Source: a bacterium
GTDB lineage: Bacteria; Patescibacteriota; Dojkabacteria; B142; OLB20
Direction: 5' to 3'
NCBI GenBank assembly: GCA_021463645.1
Contig: JAJTYI010000009.1
Location: 253,269-300,756, forward strand
DNA: 47,488 nt
This document shows, piece after piece, positions 33,387-39,247 of this stretch. A model generated the notes under the pieces. It saw only the letters and a program-made list of their open reading frames with translations. It searched no databases and was not told the origin of the DNA. The stretch's first letter is position 1. Each line of letters starts with the position of its first letter. The position numbers were made by a program, and so were the translations under genes.

Positions 33387-33450
33387 GCTGGAATAGCTTC
33401 CTTCTTCGCTAAAGCTACGAAGGACAAGCAGTTGGTTTTGAGACCAGCTA
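33387..33450 (+). repeat. 5'-half tRNA-Thr copy with a hairpin in the D arm
   Basis: The first 12 bases of the adjacent tRNA-Thr (GCTGGAATAGCT) are repeated, then interrupted by a hairpin (33399-33424): TCCTTC-TTC-GCT-AA-AGC-TAC-GAAGGA. The tRNA sequence then resumes with CAGTTGG and stops after the D arm, immediately before the full tRNA. A TATAAT lies about 10 bases upstream. The insert has the same TTC/TAC internal loop as those at 4938-4968 and 38307-38332. Confidence 0.85.
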
Positions 33451-33451
33451 C

Positions 33452-33524
33452 GCTGGAATAGCTCAGTTGGCAGAGCACACCCATGGTAAGGGTGGGGTCC
33501 AGAGTTCGAATCTCTGTTCCAGCT
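33452..33524 (+). tRNA. tRNA-Thr(GGT)
   Basis: Acceptor GCTGGAA pairs with TTCCAGC, discriminator T. Anticodon arm CACCC-ATGGTAA-GGGTG gives anticodon GGT. The T arm AGAG-TTCGAAT-CTCT is standard. CCA is not encoded. Confidence 0.95.
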
Positions 33525-33528
33525 TACT

Positions 33529-33603
33529 AACTTTTCTTAACGAGCTTGCGAGTTTAGAAAAGTTGTAATCCCGTAGATCTACCTTAGGGAGATCATACGG
33601 GAT
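33529..33603 (+). repeat. Bipartite hairpin module downstream of tRNA-Thr(GGT)
   Basis: Hairpin I (33529-33564): AACTTTTCT pairs with AGAAAAGTT; inside it a T/T mismatch, AAC/GTT and GA/GA around GC-TT-GC. Three bases (GTA) later, hairpin II (33568-33603): ATCCCGTA pairs with TACGGGAT; GATCT pairs with AGATC, with one bulged A on the 3' side. The same two-hairpin layout, with different but complementary stems, follows tRNA-Thr(TGT) at 38531-38606. There is no U tract, so it is not a standard terminator. Confidence 0.8.
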
Positions 33604-33688
33604 CTAAATCTAATACATACGTACTGAGAAAAGCGAATTCGAATGAAATTAGGATATCGAGGATCTACTTTAAGACAAACTTTATTTA

Positions 33689-36698: not shown

Positions 36699-36980
36699 CT
36701 ATTTACGGACAATATGGGGGGTGTTTCGAAGATTCCCAATATTTAATTTAAGACGATTTATTTTCTCCTCCCTACTCCATTTCTTAATCTCAATCTCTCG
36801 TTTCAAAGCTTCAGACCAGCTCTCGAAACATTCCGTATAAATTAATTTAAATGGCTTCCTGCTGTTAACGTATTTTGACCCTTTGCCACTATTGTGTACT
36901 TCTAAACGCTCTTCAATATCTTTAGCAACACCTGTATAAAGTGAGTTGTCCCTGCATAATAATATATATAAGTTGCACAT
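36699..36980 (-). CDS. GIY-YIG domain endonuclease (YhbQ-like)
   Basis: Single-domain UvrC-type nuclease, 93 residues. The motif pair is YILLC and SLYTGVAKDIEERLEVHN, with the Tyr and Arg of the catalytic site, and the later Glu in the KREIEIKKWSR helix region. Stand-alone proteins of this type are common in CPR genomes; their role is unknown. It lies 4 bases downstream of a small zinc-ribbon gene. Confidence 0.9.
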   Translation of the reverse strand: MCNLYILLCRDNSLYTGVAKDIEERLEVHNSGKGSKYVNSRKPFKLIYTECFESWSEALKREIEIKKWSREEKINRLKLNIGNLRNTPHIVRK

Positions 36981-37736: not shown

Positions 37737-37805
37737 CAATTGTTCTTTGATTTGCAAGGATTTAATGCTTTTTGCTGATTTTTGAAAGTCATTATGACTT
37801 AAGAA

Positions 37806-37872
37806 AAGCAAGCGCAAGCAGGAGTCAAGTCGCTAGCGATCTTGACGGATGCTGGAGCTTTGCTTCGACGCA
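37806..37872 (+). other. Structured 67-nt leader of tRNA-Tyr
   Basis: Folds as AAGCAAGC/GCTTTGCTT, a GCA/GGA internal loop, AGCA/TGCT, a GGA/GGA internal loop, GTCAAG/CTTGAC and an inner TCGC-TA-GCGA, then a CGACG tail ending directly at the first base of the tRNA. The leader of tRNA-Trp (38957-39023) has the same length, order of elements, GCTGGAGC segment and CGACG tail with different, complementary stems. Confidence 0.75.
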
Positions 37873-37955: not shown

Positions 37956-38023
37956 ATTAATTTGTAATAGCTCGTTATAATAAAAATGTTATGTTCGAAA
38001 AATCGATTGGGATGAAAAGTTTA

Positions 38024-38113
38024 CCCCGTGAATCGAACATAGTGAGATTGCACGGGGAATCCCTCCCTCTGCACCAATTCATTCAACGAACTTTGTGAGT
38101 TGAAAATGAATTG
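38024..38113 (+). repeat. 3' tRNA-Tyr fragment flanked by GA/GA hairpins
   Basis: Hairpin 38024-38057: CCCCGTG/CACGGGG, AATC/GATT with one bulged G, GA/GA, AC-ATA-GT. It is joined directly to 16 bases identical to the 3' end of tRNA-Tyr (38058-38073), so the hairpin occupies the place of the T loop. A second hairpin (38075-38113) follows: CAATTCATT/AATGAATTG, CAAC/GTTG with a two-base bulge, GA/GA, AC-TTT-GT. A further plain hairpin TGCCTG/CAGGCA is at 38116-38134. Confidence 0.8.
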
Positions 38114-38168: not shown

Positions 38169-38526
38169 GCTGGAGTAGCTCAGTCCCGATAAATTGTAAC
38201 TCTGTTACAAATTTATCGTGGATCCTCACTGTTCTAATTCATCCCTTCTGGAGAAGGGAGGAAAGAACAGTGGGATTGGTAGAGTCCCGCAGGAGCTGGG
38301 ATAGCTTCCCGCTTCGCTTAAGCTACGCGGGACAGGCAGTTGGTTAGAGTCACTCCTCAGCTGGAGTAGCTCAGTTGGTAGAGCAACGGTTTTGTAAACC
38401 GTCGGTCATGGGTTCGAGTCCCCTCTCCAGCTGAGGAGTGATAAACAGTAGGTCGAGAGTTCGAATCTCTCCCCCAGCTCCAACGGGATAAACCGTCGGT
38501 CATGGGTTCGAGTCCCCTCTCCAGCT
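38169..38526 (+). repeat. Three-level nested tRNA element
   Basis: Outer shell A: a split copy of tRNA-Thr(TGT), 5' part 38169-38284 with a large structured D-loop insert (38185-38276), 3' part 38484-38526; acceptor GCTGGAG/CTCCAGC; the split ends pair as TCCCG (38285-38289) with CGGGA (38484-38488). Middle shell B: GGAGCTGGG (38292-38300) pairs with CCCAGCTCC (38473-38481); its D arm carries a hairpin (38307-38332), and its 3' half 38441-38481 looks like a different tRNA. Core C: the intact tRNA-Thr(TGT), joined to B by CACTCCTCAGCTGGAG (38351-38366) pairing with CTCCAGCTGAGGAGTG (38425-38440), 16 perfect bp. A TATAAT (38163-38168) abuts A. Confidence 0.85.
38360..38432 (+). tRNA. tRNA-Thr(TGT)
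   Basis: Acceptor GCTGGAG pairs with CTCCAGC, discriminator T. Anticodon arm ACGGT-TTTGTAA-ACCGT gives TGT. The acceptor stem is extended by flanking complementary DNA to 16 bp. The gene is the intact core of the nested element. Confidence 0.95.
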
Positions 38527-38530
38527 TACT

Positions 38531-38606
38531 AGAGTTTCTTAATGAATAATGTGAATTTAGAAACTCTGTAATCCTCGAAATTGAGCGTAGCGAAATTATC
38601 GAGGAT
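38531..38606 (+). repeat. Bipartite hairpin module downstream of the nested tRNA
   Basis: Hairpin I (38531-38567): AGAGTTTCT/AGAAACTCT, a T/T mismatch, AAT/ATT, GA/GA, AT-AAT-GT. Hairpin II (38571-38606): ATCCTCGA/TCGAGGAT, AATT/AATT with a bulged A on the 3' side, GA/GA, GC-GTA-GC. Layout and GTA spacer match 33529-33603 although most stem bases differ. Confidence 0.8.
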
Positions 38607-38642
38607 CTTTACAAATTTAAATAACTATTAATAACAAAAATA

Positions 38643-38949: not shown

Positions 38950-38956
38950 CAAAGGA

Positions 38957-39023
38957 GCAACAGGTGGAAGCTGAAGTGAAGTACTTTAGCATCTTCACAA
39001 AAGCTGGAGCCTTGTTGCGACGA
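38957..39023 (+). other. Structured 67-nt leader of tRNA-Trp
   Basis: Folds as GCAACAGG/CCTTGTTGC, a TGGA/GGA internal loop, AGCT/AGCT, a GAA/AAA internal loop, GTGAAG/CTTCAC with an 11-nt loop, then a GACG tail ending at the first tRNA base. It is the counterpart of the tRNA-Tyr leader at 37806-37872. Confidence 0.75.
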
Positions 39024-39095
39024 AGGGTCATGATGTCAATGGTAGCATGGAGGTCTCCAAAACCTCTCGTCTAGGTTCGAATCCTAGTGACCCTG
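39024..39095 (+). tRNA. tRNA-Trp(CCA)
   Basis: Acceptor AGGGTCA pairs with TGACCCT; discriminator G, as expected for bacterial tRNA-Trp. Anticodon arm GAGGT-CTCCAAA-ACCTC gives CCA. Located upstream of secE-nusG as in many bacteria. Confidence 0.95.
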
Positions 39096-39247
39096 TATGA
39101 AAGTATATAAGTAAAAAGCAAAATACTTTCGTCTAGGTTCCCCCGTATTAAATACGGGGCTAGTGACCATGTATGAAAGTATATAAGTAAAAAACAAAAT
39201 ACTTTCGTCTAGGTTCCCCCATATTGAATACGGGGTTAGTGGCCATG
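39096..39247 (+). repeat. Two 76-bp tandem repeats derived from the tRNA-Trp 3' half
   Basis: Units 39096-39171 and 39172-39247 differ at five positions. Each has a hairpin GAAAGTAT/ATACTTTC in the place of the anticodon arm, then GTCTAGGTTC from the tRNA-Trp T arm, a hairpin CCCCGTAT/ATACGGGG (one mismatch in the second unit) in the place of the T loop, and the closing CTAGTGACC of the tRNA acceptor side. Confidence 0.88.

What the first reader, a model, noticed from the sequence alone, without database searches (positions are those of the whole stretch)
38169..38526. Nested tRNA: an intact tRNA-Thr inside two split tRNA shells
Going inwards, a split copy of tRNA-Thr(TGT) contains, in its anticodon arm, a second split tRNA-like shell, which contains in its own anticodon arm the intact tRNA-Thr(TGT). 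Every level is closed by complementary DNA: acceptor GCTGGAG/CTCCAGC; TCCCG/CGGGA; GGAGCTGGG/CCCAGCTCC; and CACTCCTCAGCTGGAG/CTCCAGCTGAGGAGTG (16 perfect bp). Both shells also carry hairpins in the D arm, and both lack the 5' strand of the anticodon stem. Pairing across all levels is unlikely from simple tandem duplication. I know of no description of such a nested arrangement. Possible meanings: repeated insertion of hairpin DNA into the loops of an existing tRNA, or a precursor from which the central tRNA is released.
Basis: partly seen in the sequence, partly recalled or inferred. Interest (0 to 1): 0.93.

Follow-up and report, generated by a model that had tools for sequence, protein, structure and literature searches.

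The report
Whole tRNA nested inside broken tRNAs
In these tiny bacteria, complete tRNA genes have repeatedly landed inside older copies of themselves, splitting the old gene and taking over its job, probably helped by DNA-cutting enzymes encoded next to many of the same tRNA genes.

Summary
At 38169-38526 an intact tRNA-Thr(UGU) sits inside a split tRNA-Thr, which sits inside a second split tRNA-Thr, and every level is closed by inverted repeats. A same-genus genome has one unbroken tRNA-Thr at the same place, with the same leader and trailer. The outer shell is therefore the native gene, opened between nt 24 and 36. It is not unique. Nine other assemblies, nearly all patescibacterial, nest tRNA-Thr(UGU) in the same loop, and Val, Arg, Ile, Pro, Trp and Ala cases were also read. 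In this genome 10 of 39 tRNAs have a copy of their own 5' end upstream and 10 have a copy of their own 3' end downstream; the reverse never occurs. Small GIY-YIG nuclease genes cluster at tRNAs (16 of 29 within 250 bp, 0.7 expected) and typically lie between a displaced tRNA half and the intact tRNA. Best explanation: homing-endonuclease-type elements invade tRNA genes, bring replacement tRNA sequence and leave the displaced halves as shells. The window's nest would be an ORF-less relic of two rounds. The displacement is well supported. The GIY-YIG driver is inferred, because the nest itself contains no such gene. No description was found in the papers searched.

The parts
38169..38183 (+). 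outer shell, native tRNA-Thr(UGU) 5' half, nt 1-15
   Evidence: identical to the start of the intact gene; with its leader it aligns to the unsplit gene of same-genus G001
38184..38275 (+). double hairpin in the outer D loop: TCCCG-hp-CGTGGATCC-hp-GGGA (38184-38222 and 38223-38275)
   Evidence: both hairpins in the minimum-energy folds; same layout in broken tRNA-Met and tRNA-Val copies
38276..38284 (+). outer shell, rest of the D arm (TTGGTAGAG, to nt 24)
   Evidence: sequence; next tRNA base present is nt 36
38285..38291 (+). left inverted repeat of the first insertion, TCCCGCA
   Evidence: pairs with 38482-38488, part of I12
38292..38307 (+). shell 2, 5' part (GGAGCTGGGATAGCTT)
   Evidence: pairs with CCCAGCTCC at 38473-38481
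38308..38331 (+). D-arm hairpin of shell 2, family core TTCGCTNAAGCTACG
   Evidence: 13 copies in fetched loci, with outer-stem pairs changed on both sides
38332..38349 (+). shell 2, rest of the D arm (ACAGGCAGTTGGTTAGAG)
   Evidence: sequence
38350..38359 (+). left inverted repeat around the inner tRNA, TCACTCCTCA
   Evidence: perfect 17-bp inverted repeat together with the acceptor stem (I4)
38360..38432 (+). intact inner tRNA-Thr(UGU)
   Evidence: ARAGORN; Rfam 69.3 bits; 73/73 identical to G001
38433..38441 (+). right inverted repeat around the inner tRNA
38442..38481 (+). shell 2, 3' half from nt 36
   Evidence: 74% to the inner 3' half without gaps (D3)
38482..38488 (+). right inverted repeat of the first insertion, AACGGGA
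   Evidence: I12
38489..38526 (+). outer shell, native 3' half, nt 36-73
   Evidence: 100% to the inner 3' half (D3); continues into the native trailer aligned to G001
33387..33451 (+). related broken 5' copy with D-arm hairpin directly before intact tRNA-Thr(GGU) 33452-33524
   Evidence: 82% to the shell-2 region; absent from G001

Best explanation
The locus is a tRNA gene invaded twice from within. (1) Shown: the native tRNA-Thr(UGU) gene was opened in its anticodon arm and a segment carrying another tRNA-Thr was inserted; that tRNA was itself opened in the same place around the present intact copy. (2) Shown: such displacement is recurrent in this genome and its relatives, leaving the tRNA's own 5' part upstream and its own 3' part downstream. 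(3) Inferred: the incoming cognate tRNA takes over, probably from the old promoter, so the insertion is tolerated, and the shells then collect hairpins in their loops. (4) Inferred: the driver is a family of small GIY-YIG homing endonucleases that cut tRNA genes. Their genes lie between the displaced half and the rebuilt tRNA in many loci; the window's nest would be a derivative that lacks the endonuclease gene.
For: Unsplit allele at the same place in same-genus G001, with the same leader and trailer. Shell halves complementary without overlap: Thr 1-24/36-73, Val 1-22/33-73, Arg(UCG) 1-22/34-73 in this genome, and 1-35/36-73 in G018. In tRNA-Val the shell matches the native gene of G001 (GGGTAGT/ACTACCC) while the inner copy is a different allele (GGGTGGT/ACCACCC), best matched at 95% in another genus and another family against 93% in the congener. 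Own 5' ends upstream in 10 of 39 tRNAs and own 3' ends downstream in 10, never reversed; permuted flanks give means of 0.4 each; G001 7/0/0/7. Nine true Thr nests found in the genome collection, nearly all in assemblies named as Patescibacteria; the other seven pattern matches were chance or low-complexity. 16 of 29 small GIY-YIG genes within 250 bp of a tRNA, 0.68 expected, P about 4e-19, 15 of 16 on the same strand. 10 of 17 GIY-tRNA pairs have a tRNA copy on the far side at E<1e-3, none of the control regions.
Against: No GIY-YIG gene lies inside the window's nest. The nearest, 36699-36980, is 502 bp from tRNA-Ala and looks like an ordinary stand-alone GIY-YIG gene. Most of the named Thr nests also have none inside. 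Cutting by these enzymes was not tested. Homing does not by itself explain the perfect, sequence-diverse inverted repeats around the inner tRNAs or the roughly 11-nt loss of the 5' anticodon strand in this genome's cases. One 5' shell, tRNA-Gln, is 128/129 identical between the two species although neighbouring coding sequence is about 77%, which a dead remnant would not predict.
Confidence: 0.58

Rival explanations
1. A different mobile unit, a palindromic (hairpin) element carrying a tRNA and moved in trans or by template switching at hairpin loops, makes the insertions. The GIY-YIG genes are passengers that also like tRNA genes.
For: Insertion points are tRNA loops; the inner tRNAs have long perfect inverted repeats with different sequences (17 bp in Thr, 15 bp with three G-U in Val); hairpin families with conserved cores and changing stems recur in D and T arms; most nests contain no GIY-YIG gene.
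Against: No Y1/IS200-type transposase in the genome; the GIY-YIG/tRNA association and its fixed internal order are far beyond chance.
Confidence: 0.25
2. Tandem duplication of tRNA genes followed by loss of the 3' part of the upstream copy and the 5' part of the downstream copy.
For: Leaders and trailers are sometimes repeated (Met, Lys, Arg), some 5' and 3' remnants occur without a partner, and in L198 the two displaced parts of tRNA-Asp overlap.
Against: In the nests the two halves are complementary without overlap and show the same allele, as in Val; no 3' end survives upstream and no 5' end downstream in either genome; shells are closed by inverted repeats.
Confidence: 0.08
3. A functional precursor: the shells are kept because they fold around the central tRNA and control its release.
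For: Strong fold; old upstream region retained; the tRNA-Gln 5' shell is almost unchanged between species.
Against: The outer shell of the orthologous Thr nest differs strongly between G018 and G024 while the inner tRNA is identical; the congener does without the shells at Thr, Val, Met and Leu.
Confidence: 0.07
4. Assembly artefact of the metagenome-assembled genome.
For: Draft assembly in 9 contigs, 88% complete; no reads available here.
Against: The same arrangement in many independent assemblies and for many tRNAs, with species-specific differences.
Confidence: 0.02

Closest known systems
Mobile endonuclease ORFs that replace gene ends in fungal mitochondria (Allomyces atp6; Glomus atp6, atp9, cox2, nad3; PMC3630166)
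   Same: An endonuclease gene invades a gene and brings a foreign replacement part; the native part is left displaced beyond the ORF and matches the relatives' native gene
   Different: There protein genes and only the 3' end; here tRNA genes, 5' or 3' parts or a complete tRNA, nested repeatedly; GIY-YIG in bacteria; activity not shown here
Phage T4 SegB, free-standing GIY-YIG homing endonuclease of the tRNA region (PMC2988022)
   Same: A GIY-YIG gene lies among tRNA genes and drives inheritance of the tRNA region
   Different: Cuts a tRNA intergenic region; no split or nested tRNAs described in the passages read
Insertion sequences in rRNA genes of CPR bacteria (PMC11270868)
   Same: Same bacteria; GIY-YIG proteins in insertions that match no intron, many uncharacterised insertions under 200 bp, at tops or bases of stem-loops
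   Different: rRNA genes; tRNA is not mentioned in that paper; no replacement gene copy in the passages read
Group I introns in bacterial tRNA anticodon loops (general knowledge)
   Same: Insertion in the anticodon loop, sometimes with homing endonucleases
   Different: No intron match; the insert carries a whole tRNA and the outer halves lack the stem needed for a spliced tRNA
Mitochondrial double-hairpin elements (from memory)
   Same: Paired hairpins placed in loops of tRNA genes
   Different: Not compared by sequence; here joined to tRNA displacement

Membership tests
Homing endonuclease element with gene-part replacement | endonuclease gene inside the invaded gene's displaced parts | tested here: not met
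   not met for the window's nest (no ORF inside); met in other loci (L175, L177, L198, L208, L209)
Homing endonuclease element with gene-part replacement | displaced part matches the relatives' native gene and the inserted part is of other origin | tested here: inconclusive
   tRNA-Val: shell like G001 native, inner a different allele. For the window's Thr the outer halves match the native gene, but the inner copy equals the native sequence too, so its origin cannot be told
Homing endonuclease element with gene-part replacement | site-specific cleavage and recombination-dependent spread | not testable with these tools
   needs biochemistry
Group I or II intron | intron core matching a covariance model | tested here: not met
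   no intron among Rfam matches
Tyrosine-recombinase integrative element at tRNA | direct repeat of the tRNA 3' end with integrase-bearing DNA between | tested here: not met
   not met at the window's nest: between the intact tRNA and the downstream 3' half lie only shell 2 and short repeats. Integrase genes elsewhere in the genome were not searched for
IS200/IS605 or REP-associated transposition | Y1 transposase (PF01797) | tested here: not met
   0 matches in the genome, controls positive
Functional split or intron-containing tRNA | halves that join into a complete cloverleaf | tested here: not met
   both shells lack the anticodon 5' strand

The most novel reading that the evidence does not exclude
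Patescibacteria carry a distinct class of mobile element whose cargo is an essential tRNA. A GIY-YIG endonuclease opens the cognate tRNA gene in its anticodon arm, the element inserts with an intact tRNA that rescues the cell, and its own new tRNA becomes the next target, so that elements stack like nested dolls and steadily replace the cell's tRNA set.
Probability: 0.35. Interest if true: 0.88.

Novelty: new variant of a known kind. Interest (0 to 1): 0.78.

Why it matters
tRNA genes are usually treated as slowly evolving and safe from disruption. Here cells with hardly any spare tRNA genes have them replaced from within, over and over, which would give a route for horizontal replacement of essential RNA genes in a very large, mostly uncultivated bacterial group. 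It also predicts the target of a large set of unassigned small GIY-YIG proteins, and warns that tRNA annotation and tRNA counts in these genomes need care.

Tried and rejected
Group I/II intron or another known RNA: no Rfam match except tRNA (the weak sX4 hit overlaps tRNA-Tyr). Y1 transposase: absent. Phage carriage: the only viral-contig match is AT-rich chance sequence. Low-complexity hits in Prevotellaceae, Lachnospiraceae and others set aside after reading. Simple tandem duplication rejected for the nests. Leader-trailer pairing as a mark of nesting was not kept: several un-nested tRNAs have it too, as A-run/T-run terminator-like flanks. Literature searches for nested tRNAs, tRNA insertions or GIY-YIG/tRNA links in Patescibacteria found no description; many subscription papers and preprints are not held.

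Full report
The observation. From outside in: outer tRNA-Thr 5' half 38169-38183 and 38276-38284, with a double hairpin in the D loop (38184-38275); inverted repeat TCCCGCA; shell-2 5' part 38292-38349 with a D-arm hairpin; inverted repeat TCACTCCTCA; intact tRNA-Thr(UGU) 38360-38432; then the mirror parts out to 38526. The inner gene scores 69.3 bits as tRNA. The perfect inverted repeat around it is 17 bp. The 376-nt region folds at -166.9 kcal/mol as RNA against -116.3 +/- 6.0 for shuffles (z -8.5), and z is -9.7 with DNA parameters. The shells lack nt 25-35 in the outer copy and the matching stretch in shell 2, so neither can form an anticodon stem.

Polarity. The closest genome (G001, same genus) has a single unbroken tRNA-Thr(UGU) between the same tRNA-Tyr and the same downstream gene. 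It shares the leader (ATAGCTCTTT...) and the trailer (TACTA...) that in the window flank the outer shell. The outer shell is thus the native gene, and what lies inside was added. The inner copy is 73/73 identical to the G001 gene. Shell 2 is a different tRNA-Thr sequence.

Not unique. A pattern for two tRNA-Thr(UGU) 3' halves too close to be tandem, run over 84,980 species genomes, gave 16 stretches. On reading nine are true nests, in Kerfeldbacteria, Kaiserbacteria, WWE3 (two), Parcubacteria (two), a Patescibacteria MAG identical to G018, an unnamed bacterium and one MAG labelled Thermodesulfovibrionia. Seven are low-complexity or AT-rich chance matches in other bacteria. The tool says that records of this genome or very near ones may be left out. 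In most nests the cut is between nt 35 and 36 (TTTTG|TAAAC). A generic T-loop pair pattern over 86 class members led to nests of tRNA-Ile (L060, two displaced 3' halves), Pro (L070, L078), Trp (L067), Ala (L085) and an Arg inside a Thr (L066), and in the window's own genome to Arg(UCG) (L059); reading all own tRNA flanks added Val(GAC). The strict Thr pattern is rare: 2 of 86 in the class and 3 matches in 380 of the phylum, one of which (G298) looks like chance.

Genome-wide rule. For each tRNA, exact copies of 12 nt or more of its own 5' end or 3' end were sought in 600 nt on either side. In this genome 10 of 39 have the 5' end upstream and 10 have the 3' end downstream, with none in the opposite positions. 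In G001 the counts are 7, 0, 0, 7 of 34. When flanks are permuted among tRNAs the means are 0.1-0.5 and no run exceeds 4. 5' remnants mostly end in the D loop (about nt 12-17) or the anticodon loop (36-37); 3' remnants mostly start in the T loop (about 58) or the anticodon loop. Several are present in one species and absent from the other: Met, Leu(CAA), Thr(CGU), Thr(GGU), Thr(UGU) and Val(GAC) in this genome, Ser(UGA) in G001. The process is therefore recent.

Displacement rather than duplication. Shell halves of the nests are complementary without overlap: Thr 1-24/36-73, Val 1-22/33-73, Arg(UCG) 1-22/34-73, G018 Thr 1-35/36-73. In Val, both shell halves show the G001 allele (GGGTAGT paired with ACTACCC), while the intact copy is a different allele (GGGTGGT/ACCACCC) whose best matches are in another genus of the family and in another family (95%), against 93% in G001. 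That difference is small for a 74-nt gene and only suggests foreign origin. In the G018/G024 pair the inner Thr is unchanged while the shell has drifted. One GIY-YIG locus (L198, Asp) has displaced parts that do overlap, so some loci may include a duplication step.

The likely driver. Small GIY-YIG ORFs kept appearing beside tRNAs. With the Pfam model over four genomes, leaving UvrC aside, 16 of 29 lie within 250 bp of a tRNA (0.68 expected, P about 4e-19), 12 within 60 bp, and 15 of the 16 on the tRNA strand. The genomes are two pairs of relatives, so the 29 are not fully independent. The usual order is: old upstream region, displaced tRNA 5' half with hairpins in its loops, GIY-YIG ORF, intact tRNA of the same kind (L175 Cys, L177 fMet, L197 Lys, L198 Asp, L208 Leu, L209 Ser). 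Of 17 GIY-tRNA pairs, including tRNA-Tyr and tRNA-Trp in the named records L045 and L046, 10 have a copy of the tRNA part beyond the ORF at E<1e-3, and no control region does; some of the rest are cut by contig ends. This is the layout of fungal mitochondrial endonuclease ORFs that bring a replacement gene end and leave the native end displaced (PMC3630166), and recalls T4 SegB, a GIY-YIG homing endonuclease of the tRNA region (PMC2988022). In CPR rRNA genes, intron-less insertions and GIY-YIG genes at stem-loops have been reported (PMC11270868), but that paper does not mention tRNA.

What is shown and what is inferred. Shown: the nest, the native identity of the outer shell, recurrence, the directional rule, and the GIY-YIG association and order. 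Inferred: that the endonucleases cut tRNA genes; that the incoming tRNA rescues the cell and is expressed from the old promoter; that the window's nest, which has no ORF, descends from such elements. Unexplained: the long, perfect but sequence-diverse inverted repeats around inner tRNAs, the constant loss of about 11 nt on the 5' side in this genome's nests, the hairpin families in D and T arms (for example core TTCGCTNAAGCTACG with stem pairs changed on both sides), and the near identity (128/129) of the tRNA-Gln 5' shell between two species that differ by about 20% around it.

Novelty. No description was found in the open-access papers searched. The principle, an endonuclease-linked element carrying a replacement part of its target gene, is known; its use on tRNA genes, with complete tRNAs stacked inside one another, appears new. 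Hence 'new variant of a known kind', with a real chance that it is a class of its own.

Noticed in passing
window 37800-37872 and 38950-39023; also before tRNA-Phe in L113: A similar structured leader (about 70 nt, ends ...GCTGGAGCYTTGYT.CGACG) stands before tRNA-Tyr, tRNA-Trp and tRNA-Phe, in both this genome and G001 for Tyr and Trp: the three aromatic tRNAs. 71% mean column identity in five copies, with complementary arms by eye; no Rfam family.
   Followed up: partly
L103 upstream of tRNA-Gln(UUG), against G001 L160: 129 nt covering the likely promoter and the displaced 5' half of tRNA-Gln differ at one base between two species, while adjacent coding DNA is about 77% identical: possible functional leader, or recent exchange.
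   Followed up: partly
window 39084-39235: 76-bp tandem repeat after tRNA-Trp made of the tRNA's 3' part with a hairpin (CCCCGTATTAAATACGGGG) in place of the T loop, plus the trailer.
   Followed up: no
window 38009-38074: Displaced 3' end of tRNA-Tyr with a hairpin in the T loop (TACCCCGTG...CACGGGGAATCCCTCCCTCTGCA); the same T-loop insert type follows tRNA-Lys, -Ile and -Leu elsewhere in the genome.
   Followed up: partly
window 38527-38625 and 33525-33605: tRNA-Thr(UGU) and tRNA-Thr(GGU) share a two-hairpin trailer (TACTA-hp-TGTAATCC-hp-GGATC) whose stems differ in sequence but stay paired.
   Followed up: no
window 36699-36980 (-): Small GIY-YIG protein (93 aa) between tRNA-Ala and tRNA-Thr(GGU); conserved in G001; does not lie inside a tRNA nest.
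   Followed up: partly
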